Assembly: GCA_026418625.1 (NCBI GenBank)
Contig: JAOABA010000036.1
Span: 1 to 64,000, forward strand
Length of the DNA: 64,000 nucleotides
Reading direction: 5' to 3'
Source: Candidatus Kapaibacterium sp.
GTDB taxonomy: Bacteria; Bacteroidota; Ignavibacteria; Kapaibacteriales; UBA2268
Shown: positions 7,824 to 45,897 of the stretch, piece by piece
How the letters are laid out: the number at the start of each line of letters is the position of its first letter
Position numbering within the stretch: the first letter of the stretch is position 1
Made by a program: the position numbers and the translations under genes
Notes under the pieces: model-generated
Database searches by the model: none
The model's input: the letters and a program-made list of their open reading frames with translations, nothing else
Told to the model about the DNA's origin: nothing

Positions 7824-8744
7824 TTAGTCCGGAATATCTGAAAAATCTTCATTATCAATTTTTAATTCTGAGTTTTCGGTCTTTAAATCATCTTCAATGT
7901 TTTCATCAAAGAAATAATTGCTTTCATCTGGTGGAATTTTCAGAAGAGAGTTTTTGATTTTCTCAAGTTGAGCTTTGAAACTTGCATCAATAATTCCGCT
8001 GGAAGTCTCTATGATACAGCTTCCGGGGTCAACCTCATCGTTGGATACAATAAGAGTATTTTCCAATTTAGAATTGTCAGCTACGAGAGAACTCTTAACG
8101 TTTTTCAAAATCTCGAGTGTATATGGATGCAAATGGATTTTGAAAACCATATCATTATGAATAGCTTGAATGGCTTTTTTAGCTTGTTCAATTACTATTT
8201 CTGAATGGGCTGTAACCTCTCGCTGGAGTATATGTTCGGCAACCATAATTGCTAAGGGGACCAAATTTTGCTCAAGCTTTTTCAATTCATTTACAAATTT
8301 TGCCCTGAGATTTGTTAGCAATTTATCTATGTTACGAATCCAATGCTCTCTTTTTTCCAGCTCGATTTCGAATGTTTTTCTTGTCATTTGCCGGGCATCA
8401 TCGAAGCCTTTATCATAAGCGTGTTGAACTTCAACTTGGACTTCGCTGACTGGGACTAAATTTTTATTTAATTTTTCTAATGAAATTTGAATGGGTTTTG
8501 ATTGAAAAGGGATTGCTCTTTCTTCGTAAAAAATGGTTCTTTGAATTTTAGGAATAACGTTAAGTATCTCTGATAGATCAAAAGGTTCAGGTTCATTCGT
8601 TTCATTATTTATATCGAAGTTATAGTTTAGTTCGCTATCGGCGAACTCACTGAAAGGGACCAACCTATCAGTGCTGAAACTTTCCGCAGGAATAATTTCT
8701 GCACGCTTTAATTTATTGGGTAATTTTAATTTGAATTCATACAT
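7824..8744 (-). CDS. fliH: flagellar assembly protein FliH
   Basis: 306 residues. FliH binds FliI and docks it at the export gate. The central section has a long charged helix (about 110-165) leading into VAEHILQREVTAHSEIVIEQAKKAI and then IHLHPYTLEILK, a common FliH/YscL pattern, with IVSNDEVDPGSCIIETSSGIIDAS close to the end. It is longer than many FliH proteins because of an acidic N-terminal extension (about 1-90) and an acidic tail. Position between fliG and fliI supports the call. Confidence 0.88.
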   Translation of the reverse strand: MYEFKLKLPNKLKRAEIIPAESFSTDRLVPFSEFADSELNYNFDINNETNEPEPFDLSEILNVIPKIQRTIFYEERAIPFQSKPIQISLEKLNKNLVPVSEVQVEVQHAYDKGFDDARQMTRKTFEIELEKREHWIRNIDKLLTNLRAKFVNELKKLEQNLVPLAIMVAEHILQREVTAHSEIVIEQAKKAIQAIHNDMVFKIHLHPYTLEILKNVKSSLVADNSKLENTLIVSNDEVDPGSCIIETSSGIIDASFKAQLEKIKNSLLKIPPDESNYFFDENIEDDLKTENSELKIDNEDFSDIPD

Positions 8745-8758
8745 AGTTGATTCTTTTA

Positions 8759-9781
8759 TTAAACGAACACATCTTCTTTGCCTCTACCGCCGATGGCGAT
8801 TTCTTCCTGCTCTTCGAGCTTCTTAATAATGTCAACTATTCTCATTTGAGCTGCTTCGACTTCCTTCAATTTGACTGGACCCATAAATTCAAGTTCTTCC
8901 TTAACAACAGCTGCAGCTCTTTCGGACATACATTTGAAAATTTTAGTCTTGATTTTTTCATCTGAGACTTTAAGAGCAAGTGCAAGGTCCTTTTTGTCAA
9001 CATCTCTAAGAATCCTTTGAATTCCTTTATCATCAATTGTAATAATATCTTCAAATAGGAACATTAAGCGTTTAATTTCAATAGATAGATTGTAATCCTT
9101 ATCTTCGATACTTTCAAGCAAAGCTTTGGCGGTAGCATTTTTGCTTTTATTAAGAATATTAGCAACAAGTTGGGCACCACCTGCAACTGATAAATTTTGT
9201 GATAATGTTGCTTCGGCTATTTGATCAACAACGTGTTCCACCTGCGACAATAATTGCGGCGAAACCTTGCCAAGTTTGGCAATTCTGAATACAACTTCAC
9301 TTCTTAGATTATCCGGAAACTCTGCAATAACGTCAGCAGATTGATCAGGAGGAAGGTGCGAAAGTATCAAAGCTACTGTTTGAGGATGCTCCTTCGAAAG
9401 AAAATTAGCCAATTGTTGAGGGTCTGCCTTCTTCAGTATGTTGAAACCTCTAACAGTAGTGAGAACTCTAATCTTTTCGACTATTTCACGAGCTCTTTCG
9501 ATACCATAGCTTTTCTCGAGCAAAATTTGTGCATAATCAAATCCACCCTCAACGAGATAATTTTGAGCAGTCATTAGTTGATAAAATTCTTCTAATACTG
9601 ACTCAACTATGTTTTGGGGTAGATCTTTAAGGTTAGTAATTTCTACTGCAATCTGCTCGACTTCTTTCATATCAAGTTCTTTGAAAACTTTTGCAGAAAC
9701 ATCAACATCGAGCGACATCAAAAGAATAGCAGCCTTTTGTCTTCCTGTTAATTTCTCAAATGTCAATTGGTCATTTTTCAT
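8759..9781 (-). CDS. fliG: flagellar motor switch protein FliG
   Basis: 340 residues. FliG forms the top of the C-ring and interacts with the stator to make torque. Seen in order: N-terminal LTGRQKAAILLMSLDVDVSAKVFKEL domain that binds FliF; middle-domain motif EHPQTVALILSHLPPDQSADVI (about 133-154); and the C-terminal torque helix with alternating charges (RILRDVDKKDLALALK, then MSERAAAVVKEELEFMGPVKL). Length is standard. It follows fliF by 61 bp. Confidence 0.97.
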   Translation of the reverse strand: MKNDQLTFEKLTGRQKAAILLMSLDVDVSAKVFKELDMKEVEQIAVEITNLKDLPQNIVESVLEEFYQLMTAQNYLVEGGFDYAQILLEKSYGIERAREIVEKIRVLTTVRGFNILKKADPQQLANFLSKEHPQTVALILSHLPPDQSADVIAEFPDNLRSEVVFRIAKLGKVSPQLLSQVEHVVDQIAEATLSQNLSVAGGAQLVANILNKSKNATAKALLESIEDKDYNLSIEIKRLMFLFEDIITIDDKGIQRILRDVDKKDLALALKVSDEKIKTKIFKCMSERAAAVVKEELEFMGPVKLKEVEAAQMRIVDIIKKLEEQEEIAIGGRGKEDVFV

Positions 9782-9842
9782 ATTATTTTAAATTTTTTTT
9801 CTTTATAATTATCGGATAAACAATATATTTACCTTAAACATT

Positions 9843-11606
9843 TCAATTTTTGCTAATTTTTTCTTCGATATCACTATGAATCATACTTCTGAGCAGTTTG
9901 ACGGCTTCCAAAGTATTAGCTTCCATATATTCTTTAATTTTTCTTTTAATTTCGAGCTTCATAATCGCTTCTTCTCCCAAAGAGCTTAATTCTGGTGCCT
10001 CAATACTTTCGCCTCTGTATTCAACCATTGAAGCATTCGGAAATTGTTGGTTAAATCCATCGGTTTTTGCTAAGTGTCTTTCGGGCGATGAACCTTCGAG
10101 CAACAATTGATCCGGCAACTCAGCGGGTAATAGCATCAAATCATCATCATCAAGCATAATATCATCTAAATCAACTTTTTCGCTTCCAGATAAATCATCG
10201 GCAGAAATCATTCCATTTTCCGGAAGTGCATAAGCAATTCTGATTTTTTCTTTTATTTGTTTTGAATGAAGCAAGCGATACATTAGAAATATTGCAATTA
10301 AAATGGCAGCAACAAGCAATAATAGCTTGATGTTTTCATTATTTTCCCACCAGTTTTTTGGCAAAGACTCCTTTAATTCTTCCTCTAAATAAGTATTATC
10401 AAAAGGAACGTTAATAACGCTAATTTGGTCATTTCTTAACTGGTCATAACCGACAGCATTTTTGACAATATCAGTTAATTTCTGCATTTCTTCATCTGTT
10501 CTTGGTATGTATTGAATGACCTTTTGTCCATTTTTATCAACAACTTTAGTAGTGCCGTTTATCAAGGCTGCGACAGAAAGTCTTTTTATATTGCCAACCT
10601 CTTTAATAATTCTTTCAACAGTTTTAGGAATTTCATAATTAGAAATTTGATTTGATTGATTTTTTGACATACTTACAGTAGGATAGCTCAAAGAGTCGAT
10701 TGATTGGCTATTTTCAGAAATAGATTGTTCGCTTCTTGTAACTTGTTTTTCGGGATCAAAATCTGTAACTGTTTTTTCTATTTGCGTAAAATCGAGTTCT
10801 GCATTTACTCTAACTTCAGAATTTCCGCCGCCTAAAACTCCATCGAGCATAGATTGAACTTTACTCGAAAGGTAATTCTCGACATTTTTTTGTTGCTCAT
10901 ATTGTTGCGAAGTAAGTCCGGCTAATGTTCCGTCGTCTGTTGGTTTTTTAGAAAGTATATTACCTTTTTGATCAACAACGACAACATCTTTGGTTGACAT
11001 ACCTTCAACGCTACTTGCAACCAGATTTTGAATACCTGCAATGTCAATTTTATCTGTGCTTCTACCGGATTTAAGATGGAGAGTAACGGAGGCACTTGTT
11101 TTTTTCTGGTCTTTGTCAAATAAGGCACGTTCGGGAATAACAATATGCACTCTCGCTTTTTTTATTTCATCAATTGAGCCAATAGTTCTCGATAGTTCAC
11201 CTTCCAAAGCACGGCGATAATTAAGCTTTTGTACAAATTCAGACATTCCAAGATTTGTCTTGTCGAAGATTTCATAGCCAACTGTTCCGGATTCTGGCAA
11301 ACCCTCACCAGCAAGGGACAATCTTGTTTCATAGACTTTGGTTTTGTCAACTAAAATAGTAGAGCCGTTATCAGCTAATTGGTATTCAATTTTGCTTTCT
11401 TTCAATTTTTGGACAATTTTTGATGCGTCACCACTTTCGAGCGAAGAAAAGAGAACTGAGTATTCATTATTAGGTTTTGACATACTAAAAATTAAGAAGA
11501 TAAATATAATAACAGCGGCGACAGCACCGAACATAATTATCTTCTGAGTTAAACTGAGTTTTCCTAAAAATCCTTTAAACTGATCTAAAATCTGTAATTT
11601 TGCCAT
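9843..11606 (-). CDS. fliF: flagellar MS-ring protein FliF
   Basis: 587 residues. FliF builds the inner-membrane MS ring that nucleates the basal body. Two membrane segments are visible (about 22-44 and 425-446) flanking the periplasmic ring-building region, which includes YEIFDKTNLGMSEFVQKLNYRRALEGELSRTI and the KARVHIVIPERALF segment. The acidic C-terminal tail (about 470-587) includes the FliG-binding end. Length and topology are typical. It lies 14 bp after fliE. Confidence 0.96.
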   Translation of the reverse strand: MAKLQILDQFKGFLGKLSLTQKIIMFGAVAAVIIFIFLIFSMSKPNNEYSVLFSSLESGDASKIVQKLKESKIEYQLADNGSTILVDKTKVYETRLSLAGEGLPESGTVGYEIFDKTNLGMSEFVQKLNYRRALEGELSRTIGSIDEIKKARVHIVIPERALFDKDQKKTSASVTLHLKSGRSTDKIDIAGIQNLVASSVEGMSTKDVVVVDQKGNILSKKPTDDGTLAGLTSQQYEQQKNVENYLSSKVQSMLDGVLGGGNSEVRVNAELDFTQIEKTVTDFDPEKQVTRSEQSISENSQSIDSLSYPTVSMSKNQSNQISNYEIPKTVERIIKEVGNIKRLSVAALINGTTKVVDKNGQKVIQYIPRTDEEMQKLTDIVKNAVGYDQLRNDQISVINVPFDNTYLEEELKESLPKNWWENNENIKLLLLVAAILIAIFLMYRLLHSKQIKEKIRIAYALPENGMISADDLSGSEKVDLDDIMLDDDDLMLLPAELPDQLLLEGSSPERHLAKTDGFNQQFPNASMVEYRGESIEAPELSSLGEEAIMKLEIKRKIKEYMEANTLEAVKLLRSMIHSDIEEKISKN

Positions 11607-11620
11607 TTCTTTTCCTATTA

Positions 11621-11929
11621 TTAAACCTGCATTCTTAATACTTCTTTATACAAATCGAGAAACTTATTTCTTATTTCCATTAATAGTTGAAAACTGGTTT
11701 TGGCTTTTTCAGCCGAAATCATCACATCGTGAATGTCAACAGGTTCACCTTTGATAAATTTTTCGGTCATCGAAGCTGATTCTTTTTGCAAGGAGTCAAC
11801 ATCGTTGATGAAACCATTCAATGTGTCGGAAAACTTGGAATTTTGAGGGGTTATTTGATTTTCAAAACCAATTTTTTGCTGAACCTCAGGCAAAAATAGT
11901 TTTCTTGGAAGATTCTCTTCTATAATCAT
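11621..11929 (-). CDS. fliE: flagellar hook-basal body protein FliE
   Basis: 102 residues. FliE is the small rod-base protein that links the MS ring to the proximal rod and is an early export substrate. The C-terminal half has the family pattern: VDIHDVMISAEKAKTSFQLLMEIRNKFLDLYKEVLRMQV. The N-terminal 40 residues are variable. Its place next to fliF and near flgB/flgC is canonical. Confidence 0.92.
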   Translation of the reverse strand: MIIEENLPRKLFLPEVQQKIGFENQITPQNSKFSDTLNGFINDVDSLQKESASMTEKFIKGEPVDIHDVMISAEKAKTSFQLLMEIRNKFLDLYKEVLRMQV

Positions 11930-11976
11930 AAGAAATCCTTTCTATTATGCTCATTCCTTGAGAAAAAAAGCCTAAA

Positions 11977-12279
11977 TCAGGCTTTGCCATCAAATATAGA
12001 ACCTTTTCGGTAACTATAATTTTGCACTTTTCCGTTTCGGTTAAACAAAACGTGATTTTCTATTTGGCGGGAATTTTCTGGGAACATTCTGATAAAAAAG
12101 TTCCTTTCCCGCTTTGTAATAATTTTATTTGTATTATTTAAATCGAACTCACTTGGGCTTATTGACTTATCCGAGATAGTATGTTCTGAATAAGATACTA
12201 CTTTTGAGGTTTTATTCAAACCTCTTGAAGAACCTATTTCAGTATTATTATAAGCCTTTATTTGTTCAGTAATTTTCAT
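11977..12279 (-). CDS. unknown small protein between flgC and fliE
   Basis: 100 residues from the ATG at 12279 (an in-frame TTG two codons upstream is possible). No signal peptide, membrane segment or family I recognise. The N-terminal half is polar and Ser-rich; the C-terminal half is basic and looks ordered (TKRERNFFIRMFPENSRQI, then VLFNRNGKVQNYSYRKGSIFD). It is tightly packed in the operon, 25 bp after flgC and 47 bp before fliE, with codon use like its neighbours, so it is very likely real and flagellum-related. A rod-export or assembly role is guesswork. Confidence 0.72.
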   Translation of the reverse strand: MKITEQIKAYNNTEIGSSRGLNKTSKVVSYSEHTISDKSISPSEFDLNNTNKIITKRERNFFIRMFPENSRQIENHVLFNRNGKVQNYSYRKGSIFDGKA

Positions 12280-12304
12280 AGACAAGTAAATTAATTATTT
12301 TTTT

Positions 12305-12790
12305 CTATATTTCCAAAGAATCACGTGCTATATTTTTAGCTGCTTCAACAACATTTGTGTTAGCTTCGAAAGCTCTTTGAGCACTTATCATCTCAACCAT
12401 TTCAGTTACAATATTGATATTTGGCATTTTTACGTATCCGTTTTCGTCAGCATCAGGGTGTGAAGGGTCGTAAACCAATCTTGGAGGTGTATTGTCTTTT
12501 GCCGTATTTGCATTTAGCACTTTGTTAGTTCCAGATAAAGGTCCCCTACTAATGTTCGAAGAATGAAGAGGATCAGTTCCGATTAATTTAATCTGAGTCT
12601 TCAATTCATTCTCGAAAGGAGAATTAGCGACAGCACGAACAATAACCACCTCACGTTTGTAAGGTTCACCGTCAGGTCCTTTAGTGGTGTTTGCATTAGC
12701 AATATTATTAGCAACAGAGCTCAAACGCATTCTTTGAACCTGCATACCCTGACTACTTATTTCAAAACTTGCAAAAATATTTTCACTCAT
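12305..12790 (-). CDS. flgC: flagellar basal-body rod protein FlgC
   Basis: 161 residues from the ATG at 12790; the frame extends 16 residues further upstream but that part is hydrophobic, atypical and unlikely. FlgC is a proximal rod subunit. Seen: N-terminal MSENIFASFEISSQGM and LSSVANNIANANTTKGPDG, and C-terminal NINIVTEMVEMISAQRAFEANTNVVEAAK. The motif PDADENGYVKMPNINIV before it is diagnostic of FlgC. Length is slightly above typical. Confidence 0.95.
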   Translation of the reverse strand: MSENIFASFEISSQGMQVQRMRLSSVANNIANANTTKGPDGEPYKREVVIVRAVANSPFENELKTQIKLIGTDPLHSSNISRGPLSGTNKVLNANTAKDNTPPRLVYDPSHPDADENGYVKMPNINIVTEMVEMISAQRAFEANTNVVEAAKNIARDSLEI

Positions 12791-12880
12791 AATATTTTTT
12801 TTCAGTTGAAACTTAAATAAAATTTTTATAAAAAACAATACGTAGAAATACGTAATTTTATATATACCAAAAAGTTAATA

Positions 12881-13291
12881 TCACTCGCGCATTCCGTTAA
12901 TTGCGCTATTAAGTCCAGTGAAAAATCGCTTTACCATTCTCGAAGCGAACCTAAATCTTATCTGATTTTTAGCTAATTCAGCCATCTCTTTATCTAAATT
13001 AACATGGGACTCACCTGAAAAATAAATCTCTGGTTTCGGTAATTCAGCTTGAGTATTTTCAGGCTCAATCGAATTTGGATCAGGCTTTCCTATTGGAATA
13101 TGCATTTCATTTGTATTAGCACCCTTGACAGCGACTTCATTTTCGTTGAAAAATTCCTCGAATTTAACCCGCTCGGGTCTATAGTGAGGTGAAGTAGCAT
13201 TAGCAATGTTTTTTGCTATAGTCTTTTCCCTCAAGGCATAGGTATCCAGTCCGCGATTTAAGAGCGGCAGCCTGTTCTTGAAAAGAAACAT
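12881..13291 (-). CDS. flgB: flagellar basal-body rod protein FlgB
   Basis: 136 residues from ATG at 13291. A TTG four codons upstream (13303) has AGGGA just before it and may be the true start. FlgB is the most membrane-proximal rod subunit. Seen: LNRGLDTYALREKTIAKNIAN followed by ATSPHYRPERVKFEEFF, then C-terminal VNLDKEMAELAKNQIRFRFASRMV. It is the first gene of the flagellar operon and sits 30-50 nt after a sigma-54-like element. Confidence 0.94.
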   Translation of the reverse strand: MFLFKNRLPLLNRGLDTYALREKTIAKNIANATSPHYRPERVKFEEFFNENEVAVKGANTNEMHIPIGKPDPNSIEPENTQAELPKPEIYFSGESHVNLDKEMAELAKNQIRFRFASRMVKRFFTGLNSAINGMRE

Positions 13292-13342
13292 TTTGTAAAT
13301 CAATTTTCCCTACTATCCTTAATTATTTGACACTATCGCATC

Positions 13343-18748: not shown

Positions 18749-21700
18749 ATGAAATTCCTTTACCCAAATAAAAACTTGGTCTTTTCACTTTTTGTTCTTA
18801 TTCTGTTATTATCAATAAAAATTGATATTTATGCACAGAATTTTCAACCGGCAGGTATTAACCAAATATCTTTTATTGAACCGCGGCAACAGCCATACTC
18901 AACTTACTTCATATTAAATGGAAATATTCAAGGACTAAATACACCGAGATTTCTTAATGTTTTTGCTAAGTTACCTGAAAATCCGGACGTTTATGATTGG
19001 GTGATTCAAAATGTCCCTCTTGTTCCCTTTCCTCAGCCAGAATTAATGAGTTTTTGGTTCAACTTGACTTACCTTGGATTAGAGAACGGGATACAAGTTA
19101 ATCAGCTACTTATGGCTTATTTTGTAACCGACACTTTTTTGATAATGCCCCCACAGCCTTTTCCACCTTCTTTGTTTGTGCCAATGACAGTCAATCAGGC
19201 AGAATATAATGTTGGGAATGGTTATATAAGAGAACCATATAACATTGGTTTTTTTGATAAAGAACCTTTGATTTTTGACCAGATAAATGTTCAGGAAATG
19301 CTCGAAAATCTTCCGAACTTACTTCAATATCGTGGTTGCCGTGTCCCAAACATAGACTTGGATTCATCAGCTAACCCACCCGGTAGTGTGGCGGGTTATG
19401 CCGGGGATAAAAATGCTTGTGCTCCAGCAGCCGCAGCAAACAGTATGCAATGGCTCGAAACGGTGCACCCTGAAATAAAATCTAATTTGTCACTTCGCGA
19501 AAAATTGATCGAGCTTAGCAAAATGATGAACAGAGCAAACAATGACGGGGTTTCTACTGTTGATTTTATTAAGGGGAAACTTGATTTTATTGATAAATAT
19601 AAGCTACCAATAAAAGTAAAATTTCAAGCCCAAGATACAGATACGAATAATATAAAATCACCAAATAATAAATATAAGAATGAAGCAAGCAACAGGAATG
19701 CAAATAAATCAGAACCGACAAAATGGGCAGCTACTTGGGAGTTTCTATTTCAGGAAATCAAAGATGGAGAAGATGTTGAACTTCTCTTAGATTCTTATAC
19801 AGTTGATGAAGAAGGGCAAATAGTTCACACAGGTGGGCACGTTGTAACAGTATCAGGCGTTAGCCAGATAGGAGGAGTGAAAAGAGTTTGGGTAAAAGAT
19901 GATACTAAACAAGGGACATCCGGAGGCACTGAGCAAACCCCATTAACTTGGCTCTTAGTTAGCGAAAGAACAGGAATTCCATATTTGAAAGAATGGTCTG
20001 AAGGACCTGATGTTACAATAGTTACCGGTATTGTTTCCGAGAGTTTTGATCCAACCATACAACACACTTTCGATCCTAAGGCAACAACAATAGGCAGAAT
20101 ATCTTTCGAAGAGCCATTTATAGCTACTAATACAACAAGTGGATTAATGGGCTTTTATCTTTTTGAAAGTAATCAACTTAAATATATCAATGCTTTGGCA
20201 AGGACTTCCGAAACACAACAACCAGTATGGTTAGTTCAGAATATGCCGGTAATGCCTTTTCATAAAGATCATTGGGTTTCAACACCTGTTGAGCTTGGGG
20301 CATTGAATCTGACTGCAGGTGTCCCTATCCAAGTTCAATTTATTACAAGCGATACAAATCTTAGAGAAAAGCCAAGATGGAACAATGATTCATTTTTTGA
20401 TATTTTTTATAAAGATGAATTAACACATTATATCCCAGATGGAGCTGCTGAAATACCATCATTTATTGAAATATCAAATATGCTTCCACCTGTTTTTACT
20501 GGGACTCAAACTCCTAAAGACTCAGTTTACAGGGGTTGCACAGTTCCAAATATTGATTTAAATAATGAATCATATCCTCAATCAGCGAATTGGGCAGGTG
20601 ATTTAAACGCTTGCGGACCAGCTTCGGCAGCAAATAGTATGCACTGGCTTTCAGAAACACATCCGAAAATAACACAAGATTTGCCTCTTAGAGAGAAAAT
20701 GGAAGAGCTAAGCAGTATGATGAAACGACAAAATTCAAGAGGTGTGAACACTTATCAGTTAATTAAGGGAAAACTCGATTTTATTGATAAATATAAATTA
20801 CCAATTAAAGTTAAGTTCCAAAGTAAATGGTTTAAGAAAGATTCGAATGTTACCTCACCAAATGATAAGTATAAGCATTTTGCAGAAAATAAAAATAATT
20901 CCAATTATGCTTATCCAGAATGGGATTGGCTGGTTCAGGAAATGAAGAATGGCGAAGATGTTGAATTGCTATACGGCTATTACGATGGTGATGGAAATCG
21001 AAGGGGAGGTCATTGGGTTACTGTTACTGGTGTTATTGAATCAGGCGGAGAAAAAAGAATTTGGATAAAAGACGATATTCTTCAAAGTGGAGAAGGTTAT
21101 GGTAAAACTTATGATATGAGAGATTCAACTGGTGAGGAAGTTATTGGTTGGGGAACCAACTTAGCAGGAACACCTGTTTTAAGAAGATTTGGCTTTGGCG
21201 ACTGGCAGTTAAGGGTTGAAAGCTTGGTTTCAGAAAGTTATGATGAAAATGTCTCATTTGAACCTCCTAAAACAAATTTAAAAATTACACTGCTTGAACC
21301 GGGAACTGACCCATTTGATTTTAATCCATTTGGCGCTTATATATCTGACATTTATCCAAAAAATGATAATTTGTTTTATCGAAACATATTATTGCGAAAC
21401 CCTGAAAATGACTCTGTTGATTGGGTTGTTCGCAATATGCCAATTATGCCATTTGAAAATCCAAGGAGAATTTCAATCGGGATTAACTTAAAAAAACTGT
21501 TTGTAAATGATAGATTGCCGGACAGTTTAGATTACTTTATTTATGATTTTCTTGATTCCACTTATCCAAAGTTTCCTGAAATTGATTGGAAAAGGATAAA
21601 TATACAAAAATCAAAATATGAAGTTTCAATTGGTATAACTGATCCAGATACAGCAAAGATACATATTCCATTTTCTTATGATTCGATTTATCATCCTTTA

Positions 21701-23950
21701 ATTAAAATAACTGAACGTTTAAAAGATTCGGTTTATATTGGTTGCAATATGCCAAATGTTGATCTCGATTCTACGGCAAATCCTGCAACGGATACTTATG
21801 CAGGGGATAAAAATGCCTGCGGTCCGGCTGCAGCGGCAAACAGTTTGCACTGGCTCGATAAGGTCCATAAACTAAATACCAATAAAACTTTGAGGGAAAA
21901 GCTCGAAGAATTAAGTAAATATATGGAAAGACAAAAGGAAAAAGGCGTTACTAATGACCAAATGATTAAAGGAAAGCTGAAATTCATAGCTGAAAACAAA
22001 CTTCCAATAGAAGTAAAGTTCCAGAGTTTCAGGCACAAAAAGGATTCTATTGTTTCAATTAAGGATAAAGACGGTAAAGAAATACAGGCAAAAAATAAAA
22101 ATACAAAAGACAATGGTTATCCAACTTGGGATTGGCTCGTCCAAGAAATGAAAGATGGTGAAGATGTCGAATTGATTTATGGTAGGTATGATTCTACCGG
22201 AAAAAGGCTTGGTGGACACGTTGTAACAGTTACGGGAGTTCTTGATGATAAGGGTGTGAAGAGAATTTGGTTCAAGGACGATACCCGCCAGACAAGTTCA
22301 GGATTGAGAAATAATCCAGATGACAGTCTTGAAACAGGGGAGGAAGTTGCAACTTGGGAAACTATCCCCGGTGATATTCCCGTAATCACACGTTGGGGTT
22401 CGAAAAGCAGACGTATAGAAGCAATAATTTCAGAGAGTTATGTTGAGCCTGTTTCACCACCAAAACCAATTATTAATGATATAAAACTCGAGAGAATAAA
22501 GTTTGATGATGGTTCTGCAAAGAAACTCGATTTTCTGCTGCTTACATATAATTTTACTTCGACAGACAAAACAAATTATATGAACATCATCCAGAAAACA
22601 AATGATGAAAATTATGATTGTTGGTGGTGGGGTAAAAATATTATTATTCCTAAGGGTATATCTGGTGGTGTAAATGCAGCATTGATTACTAATACTTGTG
22701 CAATTAGAAAAGCGGGTAAAACGGCTGACATACCGAACGAAAGCGAAGAATATGAAGTGTCAATTATATTCAGTGATTCTATTTTGACAGTCCTGCCGCA
22801 AAAGGATAGCGTTTACAAATTAACTCTGACTGAAAGAACTATCAGTTCCTTCAATGATTTAACGGATAATGTTTTGGGTTATGGCTTTAAACCAGACTTT
22901 ATACCGACTTATTTTATACCGAGTAATCCTGAGTTGAACTATAATGTTGCCGGGTTTATAAACATTGATCTTGATTCAACTATTAGCCCAACAGTTGATC
23001 CGAGCTATGCCGGAGATTACAACGCAGGAAATCCTGCCGCAGCCTCAATTTCATTTGAATGGCTTAAGAGGAATTATACACAAATTAACGACAATACTAA
23101 TGCAAGAACTAAGATTGAATTGCTTAGCAAATTTATGAACAGGCAGAAAAGCAAGGGTTCAACTGCTGTGGATATGATTAAGGGCAAACTTGCTTTGATT
23201 GACAGTCTAAGATTACCGGTTTCAGTAAAATTCCAGCTTGTAGATTACGGCAACGACTCAATTGTTTCTCCAAACAGGACTTTCGGGCATTTCGCTAAGA
23301 ATAACAATGTTATGGCTGGTTATCCAACTTGGGAATTCATTAACTCAGAAATTAAAAACGGAAGAACGGTTGAGATTATGATGCAATGGATTGACAAAGA
23401 AGGCAGACTATTAGGAAGCAAATCCGCAGTTGTTGGAGGAACCTCAAACGCAAACGGACTAAATACAATCTGGTTACTCGAAGACTTGGATCACTCTAAA
23501 TCGGGTGGCACTATACTTGCTCAATCAATATTTATGGAGACTGCAACCGCAATTTCGAGGTCATATTTGTTTGACCGATCGCTGGGTGATACTGTTTGCT
23601 GGGTTGTTGGAGCTGTTTCGCAAGGTTATGATCCAAATATGACATTCCTTGATGTGCATTCTGAATTAACTCAAGCAGATTTCAACATTTCAATATCTCG
23701 AAATCCTGTTAATTTAAATGAATCAGCTGATTTGATATTGAATGCTCCTGAAGACGGTAAAATCAGTATAAAGCTTTATAGCATCAAGGGTGAAGAAATT
23801 GCAGAGCTAATGAATGATTGGGTTACATTGGGCAGACACGAGATTAACTTAGCAGGAAAATTAAACAAGAATTTGGCTTCGGGAATGTATTATATTGCAA
23901 CAATCTTGAACGGAAGAACGATAGCTTTGCCAATTATCATACTTAATTAA
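18749..23950 (+). CDS. secreted four-module C39-like cysteine-peptidase-type protein with T9SS signal
   Basis: 1733 residues. Signal peptide 1-29 (ends IDIYAQ). Four tandem modules of about 398-403 residues follow; each pairs a beta-rich region (motif QNMPVMPF and variants) with a papain/C39-like domain, and ends in a SESYD-type motif (about 431, 829, 1227, 1623). Modules 1-3 keep the candidate catalytic set: Cys224/622/1024 in NACGPAAAANS, His364/755/1157 in GGHVVTVTGV, and Asp in KDD about 20 residues later. Module 4 has Gly1427 for Cys and Lys1558 for His, so it should be inactive. The last ~90 residues (NPVNLNESADL to the end) are a type IX sorting domain, so the protein should be released or surface-attached. 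ATG follows AGGGGG. Peptidase activity is inferred from motifs; a binding or structural role is possible. Confidence 0.8.
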   Translation: MKFLYPNKNLVFSLFVLILLLSIKIDIYAQNFQPAGINQISFIEPRQQPYSTYFILNGNIQGLNTPRFLNVFAKLPENPDVYDWVIQNVPLVPFPQPELMSFWFNLTYLGLENGIQVNQLLMAYFVTDTFLIMPPQPFPPSLFVPMTVNQAEYNVGNGYIREPYNIGFFDKEPLIFDQINVQEMLENLPNLLQYRGCRVPNIDLDSSANPPGSVAGYAGDKNACAPAAAANSMQWLETVHPEIKSNLSLREKLIELSKMMNRANNDGVSTVDFIKGKLDFIDKYKLPIKVKFQAQDTDTNNIKSPNNKYKNEASNRNANKSEPTKWAATWEFLFQEIKDGEDVELLLDSYTVDEEGQIVHTGGHVVTVSGVSQIGGVKRVWVKDDTKQGTSGGTEQTPLTWLLVSERTGIPYLKEWSEGPDVTIVTGIVSESFDPTIQHTFDPKATTIGRISFEEPFIATNTTSGLMGFYLFESNQLKYINALARTSETQQPVWLVQNMPVMPFHKDHWVSTPVELGALNLTAGVPIQVQFITSDTNLREKPRWNNDSFFDIFYKDELTHYIPDGAAEIPSFIEISNMLPPVFTGTQTPKDSVYRGCTVPNIDLNNESYPQSANWAGDLNACGPASAANSMHWLSETHPKITQDLPLREKMEELSSMMKRQNSRGVNTYQLIKGKLDFIDKYKLPIKVKFQSKWFKKDSNVTSPNDKYKHFAENKNNSNYAYPEWDWLVQEMKNGEDVELLYGYYDGDGNRRGGHWVTVTGVIESGGEKRIWIKDDILQSGEGYGKTYDMRDSTGEEVIGWGTNLAGTPVLRRFGFGDWQLRVESLVSESYDENVSFEPPKTNLKITLLEPGTDPFDFNPFGAYISDIYPKNDNLFYRNILLRNPENDSVDWVVRNMPIMPFENPRRISIGINLKKLFVNDRLPDSLDYFIYDFLDSTYPKFPEIDWKRINIQKSKYEVSIGITDPDTAKIHIPFSYDSIYHPLIKITERLKDSVYIGCNMPNVDLDSTANPATDTYAGDKNACGPAAAANSLHWLDKVHKLNTNKTLREKLEELSKYMERQKEKGVTNDQMIKGKLKFIAENKLPIEVKFQSFRHKKDSIVSIKDKDGKEIQAKNKNTKDNGYPTWDWLVQEMKDGEDVELIYGRYDSTGKRLGGHVVTVTGVLDDKGVKRIWFKDDTRQTSSGLRNNPDDSLETGEEVATWETIPGDIPVITRWGSKSRRIEAIISESYVEPVSPPKPIINDIKLERIKFDDGSAKKLDFLLLTYNFTSTDKTNYMNIIQKTNDENYDCWWWGKNIIIPKGISGGVNAALITNTCAIRKAGKTADIPNESEEYEVSIIFSDSILTVLPQKDSVYKLTLTERTISSFNDLTDNVLGYGFKPDFIPTYFIPSNPELNYNVAGFINIDLDSTISPTVDPSYAGDYNAGNPAAASISFEWLKRNYTQINDNTNARTKIELLSKFMNRQKSKGSTAVDMIKGKLALIDSLRLPVSVKFQLVDYGNDSIVSPNRTFGHFAKNNNVMAGYPTWEFINSEIKNGRTVEIMMQWIDKEGRLLGSKSAVVGGTSNANGLNTIWLLEDLDHSKSGGTILAQSIFMETATAISRSYLFDRSLGDTVCWVVGAVSQGYDPNMTFLDVHSELTQADFNISISRNPVNLNESADLILNAPEDGKISIKLYSIKGEEIAELMNDWVTLGRHEINLAGKLNKNLASGMYYIATILNGRTIALPIIILN

Positions 23951-45200: not shown

Positions 45201-45897
45201 TTCAGGTATTTCTGAATTGACTATCCCAAAAATTGAAGCTGACCCAAAAGGTAGAGCCACTATTCCTATTAACTTTAGCAATACCGAAAATAGACCTTAT
45301 CAAGGGGTTCGATTCTTTGAAACTGAAATTTCAATTAATCCACGTTTATTCCTTCCCGACACTGTCAGAAGTGATTTTGGCGATGTAAAATTAGTTAGGA
45401 ATGAGATAATTGATGGCAGAAGAATTATTGGTATTAAAGTCGAGGGTGATTTTTCTAATTTTGGTAAGGTAGCCGAGATATCAGGCTATGCAGGGTTAGC
45501 TGAAACTGACACTTCTGCCATTGAGTTTATTCAAACTGGGAAATTCTGGGGTTCAGCAGTTCAAACTAAGTTTAATAACGGCATTTTCCAATTGATAAAT
45601 CTTTGCGATGACAGAAGGATTCTTCAAAATCAAGATATTTTTAAGAACTTTAATATTATTCCGAACCCTGTGTTTGATGCCTTCAATCTTGAATTCGAGA
45701 GCTTAGAAAGTGGAATGGCATCTATTGAGATATTTAATAAATTGGGTTCTTTGGTTCTAAAACAAACTAATATTGAGGTGAGTAAGGGTGTGAATTCCAC
45801 CAAAGTCAATGCTTCTCTGCTCAATTCAGGCTCTTATAAACTTGTGGTAAAAATGAGGTCATCATTTGTTGCAAAAGATTTAATAATTATCAGATAA
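42265..45897 (+). CDS. large secreted protein with WD40-like and ASH domains and T9SS signal
   Basis: 1210 residues. Signal peptide about 1-21. N-terminal beta-rich region (about 22-330, with an LIRPNGGEIL motif typical of Ig-like modules), a WD40-like beta-propeller (about 345-655: IAYRSDGQRVLSVNDAGFLKEWD, LSPDGEMLAIG, FSPDGHSIATSA), then two ASH/choice-of-anchor-D repeats (about 680-890: FDFGEICVGDT and similar). The end (about 1130-1210, IPNPVFDAFNLEFES to DLIIIR) is a type IX sorting domain. A binding or scaffold role at the cell surface is likely; no catalytic motif was seen. The next gene starts 8 bp on. Confidence 0.82.
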   Translation: MFLNILRFIPLFLFFVIYNSNSEIKLEAFKFNNTVTVDTTEYPIFSIKIKALKNNIPFIFDKNNIILLENVNPVIPISISQPDNSQYQTVRWITKINGPSSKNDFYSTPHRLTVFVFSGSELGTLATSFDKIYLSVVSITNSRDRFEPDMYFGNLKKGEDTTRGIIVNSPIANVVNNREIPVKIDSIKTHSKYFTYEWFGSSIDSTRPPKQLYSPFYYRAAIKFKPDDTTYYRDKFTVYFEGGRKEEINLIGNQFNIPRTTVLQLIRPNGGEILLPCQQYEIKWKGAVKGIPTSVYLSLDNGATWEQIASTIDSVFFWQVPDLPTNRALIKVKQEFTNTTTKTLKEDDIPVRKIAYRSDGQRVLSVNDAGFLKEWDLQVGTSTMTKRISQLLYPAEKLVPLGLDYFDYDTKLFVVYRKESYYGQPSQDSIAFYKIDENQPYLKIQIPDNFGVKKAILDAKREKIAIIPQSGMNILLYSAKDGSTIKTLTFEKPIAAFTFNSILDESAVALLNGDVQILKNEDFSVKDKLSFEDLPLIYELGLSPDGEMLAIGCSAPLSVGTNTNRNEIHVVNIKNKLIIRTGRKSASNPVALEFGPTSAHLIVGSTAQPQIAFWDLPGDEFIGSMSGNDNILTDFKFSPDGHSIATSAASGENLNIRFFTYPEEDPSNGTFRIVRPEYNFKDITLEPAYLGSDNERKVKSVICNTGEVPLGIDHSWLVSGRHFKIKNIITPDSIYPGQCLDVEFYYHPLDTGKITDTLVVTSCTKWFFIKIESIGLKRNIAFLNNIFDFGEICVGDTITKTIDLFRNDDPVPLKVNFIAIDDQISSSFRVISKIQDTILQPGEILKVEIRFHPAEFGEILRNVYVFHSDQTFMSPNTTFHGRGLGTIFDFSHSNLMFIPEIKNRKLKIINNSKNTTNIVNAIFSQDGFYRILTPLPIKIAAGAEAEIEIEAINISPNPVSLRFEATPCNSISSILVEAYSGISELTIPKIEADPKGRATIPINFSNTENRPYQGVRFFETEISINPRLFLPDTVRSDFGDVKLVRNEIIDGRRIIGIKVEGDFSNFGKVAEISGYAGLAETDTSAIEFIQTGKFWGSAVQTKFNNGIFQLINLCDDRRILQNQDIFKNFNIIPNPVFDAFNLEFESLESGMASIEIFNKLGSLVLKQTNIEVSKGVNSTKVNASLLNSGSYKLVVKMRSSFVAKDLIIIR

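What the first reader, a model, noticed from the sequence alone, without database searches (positions are those of the whole stretch)
18749..23950. Four tandem C39-like peptidase-type modules with a dead fourth copy, exported by T9SS
The protein repeats a ~400-residue unit four times. Units 1-3 keep Cys (224, 622, 1024), His (364, 755, 1157) and a following Asp in the order expected for papain/C39-like cysteine peptidases; unit 4 has Gly1427 and Lys1558 instead. A secreted multi-unit enzyme with one degenerate unit suggests domain duplication followed by a switch to a binding or structural role. Each unit also carries its own beta-rich front domain. I know no described family with this architecture.
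Basis: partly seen in the sequence, partly recalled or inferred. Interest (0 to 1): 0.75.

Follow-up and report, generated by a model that had tools for sequence, protein, structure and literature searches.

The report
Three-headed secreted protease, fourth head inactive
An uncultured bacterium appears to export one long protein made of four copies of the same papain-like protein-cutting module, three with an intact active site and the last one stripped of it but still well preserved, which suggests a cutting machine with a built-in non-cutting part.

Summary
The 1733-aa ORF at 18749-23950 (+) has four homologous ~400-aa units (28-44% identical over the BLAST-aligned parts). Units 1-3 have Cys, His and Asp; unit 4 has Gly1427 and Lys1558 but keeps the Asp. 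AlphaFold models of unit 3 (pLDDT 86) and unit 4 (82) give a beta-sandwich plus a papain-like domain (VIA Z 13-14 to IdeS/Mac-1, T-Mac and staphopain). Profile comparison aligns Cys, His and Asp with C39_2 peptidases: probability 80% with 16 sequences, 5-89% in random subsets, shuffled controls at most 0.8%. No Pfam or NCBIfam model claims the domain. In the window's order 15 of 123 genomes have the family, 12 with tandem units, 6 of these ending in a dead unit; four units were found only in the window's genus (2 genomes). Unit 4 still looks constrained (dN/dS 0.08, synonymous sites saturated). T9SS export is supported. Most likely: a secreted multi-headed cysteine endopeptidase whose terminal unit is a non-catalytic binding or spacing module. 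Activity, substrate and the role of unit 4 are untested.

The parts
18749..18838 (+). signal peptide (aa 1-30, cleavage site approximate)
   Evidence: read by eye from the translation: basic start, hydrophobic stretch, then Ala-Gln
18839..19318 (+). unit 1, beta-rich front domain (aa 31-190)
   Evidence: aligns with the fronts of units 2 and 3; not modelled
19319..20059 (+). unit 1, papain-like domain, Cys224 / His364 / Asp385 intact (aa 191-437)
20060..20515 (+). unit 2, beta-rich front domain (aa 438-589)
   Evidence: not modelled
20516..21253 (+). unit 2, papain-like domain, Cys622 / His755 / Asp776 intact (aa 590-835)
21254..21721 (+). unit 3, beta-sandwich front domain (aa 836-991)
   Evidence: AlphaFold model m0483d8d34ae4
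21722..22465 (+). unit 3, papain-like domain, Cys1024 / His1157 / Asp1178 intact (aa 992-1239)
22478..22933 (+). unit 4, beta-sandwich front domain (aa 1244-1395)
   Evidence: AlphaFold model m756e1e531b04
22934..23644 (+). unit 4, papain-like domain without catalytic Cys and His (Gly1427, Lys1558; Asp1579 kept) (aa 1396-1632)
23702..23947 (+). T9SS type A sorting domain (aa about 1652-1733), below curated cut-offs

Best explanation
A secreted, probably surface-held, multi-headed cysteine endopeptidase. Sec signal peptide and T9SS tail take it across the outer membrane. Each of units 1-3 is a beta-sandwich domain followed by a papain-like (clan CA) domain in which Cys attacks the peptide bond, His acts as base and Asp orients the His. 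Unit 4, next to the sorting tail, keeps the fold but has lost nucleophile and base, apparently in one burst of change; it now serves as a non-catalytic module that binds substrate or a partner, or spaces the three active heads from the cell surface. Shown: four units, residues, relatives, domain order. Predicted: fold (model). Inferred: peptidase activity, surface location, role of unit 4. Sub-claims: papain-like cysteine hydrolase about 0.9; endopeptidase about 0.75; unit 4 non-catalytic and functional about 0.8; binding rather than pure spacer about 0.55.
For: Fold: models of units 3 and 4. Foldseek best hits are the Treponema Mac-like protease (E 1.9e-6) and staphopains (1e-4 to 5e-4). VIA Z 14.4 IdeS/Mac-1, 13.7 T-Mac, 13.6 staphopain C, about 12 for C1 papains. 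Triad: of 54 units compared, 48 have Cys and His at the catalytic columns and all 54 keep the Asp. In the set not chosen by a Cys-bearing pattern, 26 of 31 units have Cys and His, and the other 5 are terminal units. Profile comparison to C39_2 with the three catalytic residues aligned. Unit 4: same fold (Z 14.2 to T-Mac); stem branch about 2.0 against 0.37-0.61 for units 1-3, but tip branches since the split from L055 of the same order as theirs (0.11 and 0.15 against 0.04-0.16); dN/dS 0.084 against 0.044-0.066. Export.
Against: No member has been assayed. The papain oxyanion Gln has no conserved counterpart just before Cys (the rule itself is recalled). No coordinates, so the Cys-His distance is unmeasured. 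The structural matches also include phytochelatin synthase and an entry titled lyase. The C39_2 profile match is unstable: 5-89% over random subsets. Own sorting domain scores under the curated cut-offs. dS of 1.6-2.2 is saturated, so dN/dS is approximate. No conserved neighbour gene gives a substrate.
Confidence: 0.75

Rival explanations
1. Unit 4 is a decaying relic: it lost catalysis by drift and has no function beyond length.
For: Its stem branch is the longest among the window's units, and its dN/dS is the highest of the four point values (0.084 against 0.044-0.066; bootstrap ranges of units 3 and 4 overlap, 0.041-0.094 and 0.050-0.124).
Against: It is kept full length and in frame in both genomes of the genus and is predicted to fold; 80% aa identity in the catalytic part with dN/dS far below 1; Gly, Lys, Arg, Thr and His at the former Cys, His, Glu, Asp and Gln columns are identical in both genomes.
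Confidence: 0.12
2. The active units are not proteases but acyl-transfer or other enzymes on the same fold (transglutaminase, cyclase, amidase or lyase).
For: Phytochelatin synthase (Z about 12) and an entry titled CD lyase (Z 13.6) are among the structural matches; conserved Asp1139, Gln1181 and Glu1229 have no assigned role.
Against: The highest-ranked matches are mostly endopeptidases (IdeS, T-Mac, staphopain).
Confidence: 0.15
3. Unit 4 is an intramolecular regulator (inhibitor or activator) of units 1-3 rather than a substrate binder or spacer.
For: Precedent for catalysis-dead papain-like proteins with a regulatory role in the malarial SERA family (listing and abstract starts only). All six dead units found are the last unit of their protein.
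Against: Single-unit members and tandem members with every unit intact exist, so regulation by a dead unit is not required by the family.
Confidence: 0.15
4. The dead terminal units arose once, before the 2-unit and 4-unit architectures separated.
For: AU test does not reject one clade (p 0.34); 9 of 41 conserved columns are changed in all six dead units.
Against: The best tree places them in two clades; 2% and 4% of 200 bootstrap trees join them; long branches make this unsure.
Confidence: 0.4

Closest known systems
Mac/IdeS family (MEROPS C66, PF09028), incl. T-Mac / TDE0362 of Treponema denticola
   Same: Among the best structural matches (VIA Z 13.6-14.4); Cys-His-Asp/Asn order; T-Mac also has a beta-sandwich domain before the protease domain (PMC11833123: section 10 and passages read).
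   Different: One catalytic unit in those described in the passages; PF09028 is not among the families listed for 43 members at E 10; their active-site Lys (Lys84 / Lys379 in the paper) has no conserved Lys upstream of Cys here. No link to immune evasion was looked for or seen.
Peptidase_C39_2 (PF13529)
   Same: Closest by sequence profile: Cys, GH.V and Asp motifs in register, probability 80% with 16 sequences; weak hits in 7 of 43 members.
   Different: Below the curated cut-off (unit 3: 13.2 of 24 bits); catalytic domain of about 240 aa against a 143-position model; tandem and with a beta-sandwich front.
Staphopains (C47)
   Same: Secreted bacterial papain-like fold, Z 12.9-13.6.
   Different: Single unit (recalled); no sequence-level match found.
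Human polyserases 1-3 (serine proteases)
   Same: Tandem protease domains in one chain; in polyserase-2 domains 2 and 3 lack catalytic residues (PMC1435904: abstract and passages).
   Different: Unrelated fold and catalytic mechanism; an analogy of architecture only.
Plasmodium SERA5-type papain-like pseudoproteases
   Same: Papain-like domain without the catalytic Cys that keeps a function (search listing and abstract starts only).
   Different: Separate proteins, eukaryotic; nucleophile changed to Ser.

Membership tests
Papain-like superfamily (clan CA) | papain fold: Cys at the start of a long helix, His and Asp/Asn in the beta lobe | tested here: met
   predicted models and structural matches
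Papain-like superfamily (clan CA) | catalytic residues in order Cys, His, Asp/Asn | tested here: met
   units 1-3 and 48 of 54 units compared; unit 4 fails for Cys and His
Papain-like superfamily (clan CA) | peptidase activity blocked by E-64 or loss of Cys | not testable with these tools
   needs protein
Peptidase_C39_2 (PF13529) | score above Pfam gathering cut-off (24 bits) | tested here: not met
   unit 3 13.2 bits, E 0.13; 7 of 43 members listed at E up to 10, best E 0.0035
Peptidase_C39_2 (PF13529) | homology with catalytic residues in register | tested here: met
   hhalign 79.75% with 16 C39_2 sequences, 26% with a hand-picked 9; 5-89% over 20 random subsets of 9 and 5-84% over 20 of 12; 100 column shuffles of the 16 at most 0.5%, reversed 0.1%, 30 shuffles of the 9 at most 0.77%. 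Cys, His and Asp aligned. Moderate, not strong.
C66 (IdeS/Mac-1, PF09028) | Pfam model match | tested here: not met
   absent among the 12 families listed for 43 members at E 10; that the copy holds PF09028 is assumed
C66 (IdeS/Mac-1, PF09028) | active-site Lys upstream of Cys (Lys84 / Lys379) | tested here: not met
   no Lys among the conserved columns within 45 residues before Cys1024; a spatially equivalent Lys could not be checked without coordinates
C66 (IdeS/Mac-1, PF09028) | fold similarity above other papain-like families | tested here: inconclusive
   Z 14.4 against 13.6 staphopain: tied within 1
Staphopain (C47) | sequence-level match in Pfam or PDB | tested here: not met
   no staphopain model among listed families; PDB profile search gave one hit only, an unrelated protein at E 2.2
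T9SS cargo | Sec signal peptide and type A CTD | tested here: met
   signal peptide by eye; CTD below cut-off in this protein but aligned to three over-threshold own-genome tails; PF18962 over cut-off in 4 of 7 relatives scanned, below in 2, absent in 1
T9SS cargo | T9SS machinery in the genome | tested here: met
   SprA, PorV and PorU over their cut-offs

The most novel reading that the evidence does not exclude
The terminal dead unit is a repurposed, re-charged cleft (Cys to Gly, His to Lys, Glu to Arg, Gln to His, the same in both genomes of the genus) that captures a ligand, substrate or the cell's own surface and feeds or restrains the three active heads: a bacterial 'poly-papain' with a built-in pseudopeptidase, from an undescribed protease family whose last unit was lost to catalysis in at least one and perhaps two lineages.
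Probability: 0.25. Interest if true: 0.65.

Novelty: new variant of a known kind. Interest (0 to 1): 0.47.

Why it matters
It is an unclassified family of secreted papain-like enzymes in a poorly cultured part of Bacteroidota, with a natural series of one-, two-, three- and four-unit proteins and both live and dead terminal units. That series would let one ask directly why proteases are multiplied on one chain and what a dead protease domain is kept for.

Tried and rejected
Disulfide masking of the catalytic Cys: the second Cys (197/597/999) is lost together with the catalytic Cys in unit 4, but several single-unit members lack it and keep the catalytic Cys, so an obligatory disulfide was dropped. 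Alternative active site in unit 4: Cys1617 is shared with many intact units and His1582 replaces a Gln; no new dyad is apparent. Clustering of unit-4 losses around the triad in sequence: not significant (4 of 12 near against 7 of 29 elsewhere, p 0.70). Conserved gene neighbourhood: 35 loci compared. Runs of shared neighbours appear only in two groups of close relatives (L035/L036/L061 and L047/L048/L051); besides these, single families are shared by 3 to 5 loci (for example an Rrf2-like regulator, named by eye, in the window, L040 and L072). The one 35-locus cluster merges the protein itself with others, probably through T9SS tails, so a recurring T9SS neighbour would be hidden in it. Phage or plasmid spread: tblastn of the unit-3 catalytic domain at E 1e-5 found nothing in either collection. 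Solved structure by sequence: none. In the dN/dS run YN00 failed in 10 of 14 regions and the bootstrap gave a range in 5 of 14; NG86 values are used. C39-family structures do not appear in the 50-row structural lists; that excludes nothing.

Full report
What is there. The window lies in contig C26 of a 3.3-Mb, 58-contig genome. The closest named relative is a MAG titled Candidatus Kapabacteria (L055, 89% identity in the query stretch). The ORF at 18749-23950 (+) encodes 1733 aa: signal peptide, four units, sorting tail. All six pairs of units match by BLASTP, E 4e-38 or better. Units 1-3 carry Cys224/622/1024, His364/755/1157 and Asp385/776/1178. Unit 4 has Gly1427 and Lys1558 but keeps Asp1579. 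Upstream are a pyruvate:ferredoxin oxidoreductase-like and a dihydroorotate dehydrogenase-like gene, downstream an FKBP-like lipoprotein (these names are my reading of the translations, from no search). L055 shares the two upstream genes; among 35 loci compared, no neighbour recurs widely (with the limits told under Tried and rejected). The rest of the own genome holds no second copy, only tail matches.

What it is. No Pfam or NCBIfam model covers the units: whole protein, five pieces of it in Pfam, three pieces in NCBIfam. With 43 family members scanned one by one, Peptidase_C39_2 appears in 7 of 43, best E 0.0035; eleven other families appear in 1-3 members each, best E 0.0003. A profile of 21 catalytic domains (A1) has invariant Asn, Cys, Asn-Ser, Arg, Lys, Glu-Asp-Val, His, Asp and Gln. 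AlphaFold of unit 3 with 43 rows gave pLDDT 86.3 and pTM 0.88: seven strands of a front beta domain, one more strand, then a helix that begins at the catalytic Cys, further helices, then the strands that carry His and precede Asp. Foldseek against the PDB: T. denticola C0362 (T-Mac) E 1.9e-6, staphopains 1e-4 to 5e-4, 7 matches at E 0.001 or better. VIA: IdeS/Mac-1 Z 14.4 (rmsd 3.2, 192 aligned), IdeC 14.0, T-Mac 13.7, staphopain C 13.6, mite and plant papains about 12. Z values within 1 are ties, so no single family is singled out.

Against C39_2. I took 17 of the 26 loci that a Pfam search for PF13529 gave (two of the 16 finally used, L120 and L123, are under Pfam's cut-off), and dropped L125, whose frame had stops. 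With the 16 left, hhalign gave 79.75% with Cys, His and Asp in register; a hand-picked 9 gave 26%. Random subsets of 9 gave 5-89% and of 12 gave 5-84% (20 each); 100 column shuffles of the 16 gave at most 0.5%, the reversed alignment 0.1%, and 30 shuffles of the 9 at most 0.77%. So the likeness is above the controls in every draw, but of moderate strength.

Relatives. In 294 genomes sampled from the class, 21 have a match. In 395 sampled from the phylum, 14 have one, all of the window's own class; how many of the 395 lie outside the class is not shown. The scan of named genomes gave 30 loci, most titled Ignavibacteria or Ignavibacteriales, Melioribacter(aceae), Kapabacteria, Chlorobi or simply Bacteroidetes or bacterium, but also Bacteroidales (L062), Bacteroidia (L082, L083) and candidate division KSB1 (L065); I did not check those titles. 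In the window's order (123 held genomes), 15 have a match: two proteins with 4 units, one with 3, nine with 2 and three with 1. The four-unit form was found only in the window's genus: the own genome and G606, whose frame length (1738 aa) and contig coordinates coincide with L055. Of the 12 tandem proteins in the order, 6 end in a unit without catalytic Cys and His (own, G606 as read from L055, G194, G117, G056, G253); no dead unit was found in another place. In the search that did not depend on a Cys-bearing pattern, 31 units from the window and 20 regions of 18 further genomes (of the 20 matched; G206 and G262 were not fetched) were aligned: 26 with Cys and His, 5 without. In the larger set of 54 units (window, named loci, plus seven unnamed loci; L084 left out), 48 have both and 6 have neither, and all 54 keep the Asp. 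Loci were chosen by a pattern that contains the Cys, so that count leans towards intact. Single-unit proteins are common outside the order, two of them (L063, L079) cut off by a contig end.

The dead unit. Unit 4 folds the same way in the model (pLDDT 82.4, 28 rows; VIA Z 14.2 to T-Mac, 13.5 to staphopain C, and 12.3 to a natural papain-fold protein without the catalytic Cys, 2b1m). In the tree its stem is long (2.0 against 0.37-0.61 for the other three units), while tip lengths since the split from L055 are ordinary (0.11 and 0.15 against 0.04 to 0.16). This looks like a burst of change followed by constraint. dN/dS against L055 by NG86: 0.044, 0.057, 0.066 and 0.084 for units 1-4, and 0.32 for the tail; bootstrap 5-95% for unit 3 0.041-0.094 and unit 4 0.050-0.124. 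dS is 1.6-2.2 for the units, so saturated; YN00 failed in 10 of 14 regions. Of 41 columns conserved in the 45 intact units used, unit 4 of the window and of L055 both changed 11, the other four dead units all changed 18, and 9 are shared: Cys1024, Asn1031, Glu1138, Asp1139, His1157, Lys1176, Gln1181, Glu1229, Ser1230 (expected 4.8, p 0.004; without Cys and His, which define the class, 7, p 0.015). If the dead units share one origin, which an AU test does not reject (p 0.34), this overlap is partly shared descent. A test for clustering of the losses near the triad in sequence was negative (p 0.70). For the counts and the tree I left out L052, L054 (very divergent) and L053 (near-copy of L081); the tree has all 54.

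Export. The genome holds at least 150 matches to the T9SS tail model (242 candidates, 150 scored; this protein is not among them) and SprA, PorV and PorU over their cut-offs. This protein's own tail scores below cut-off (16.8 of 23 bits; PF18962 E 0.01) but aligns with three tails of the same genome that pass. In seven relatives scanned, PF18962 was over its cut-off in four (L054, L049, L043, L053), below it in two (L052, L038) and absent in one (L050).

How it most likely works. The protein is exported, held at or near the cell surface, and cuts proteins with three papain-like heads. The front beta domains may position the heads or substrates; for T-Mac the authors raise, as a possibility, that the beta-sandwich before the protease domain recognises substrate (PMC11833123, section 10 and passages). 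Unit 4 is best read as a non-catalytic binding or spacing module. The oxyanion-hole residue is unclear: no conserved Gln just before Cys (the Gln rule is recalled) and no conserved Lys as in IdeS/T-Mac.

Novelty. Tandem proteases with dead domains are known in human polyserases (PMC1435904, abstract and passages), and papain-like pseudoproteases in Plasmodium (listing and abstract starts; abstract and outline of PMC8167364). A 2023 classification of papain-like families was searched by six terms (PMC10318531, 12 of 20 places shown): the word 'tandem' does not occur, and the passages name inactive families elsewhere in the superfamily. Six literature searches listed no paper that I recognised from title or abstract start as describing this family; listings were capped and the library lacks most subscription journals. 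I call it a new variant of a known kind: an undescribed family in a known superfamily, with an unusual architecture.

Noticed in passing
L084:2455-4405: A family member in a Melioribacteraceae MAG is split over three reading frames; frameshifts or assembly errors.
   Followed up: no
L106, L107: Peptidase_C39_2 proteins over the Pfam cut-off that end in what looks by eye like a T9SS tail, in the same class.
   Followed up: no
L052, L054: Very divergent members, catalytic Cys/His/Asp kept, with long unrelated fronts.
   Followed up: partly
L038:8438-11524 (+) and other two-unit members: Two-unit proteins have their first catalytic domain at about aa 300-333 against 191 in the window's protein, so an extra N-terminal stretch of about 110-140 aa.
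   Followed up: no
window 45655-45882 (+): Another T9SS sorting domain, in a 1223-aa open frame of the same window.
   Followed up: no
window about 8000-13300 (-): Genes that read like flagellar parts (FliG, FliF, FlgB/C-like, by eye).
   Followed up: no
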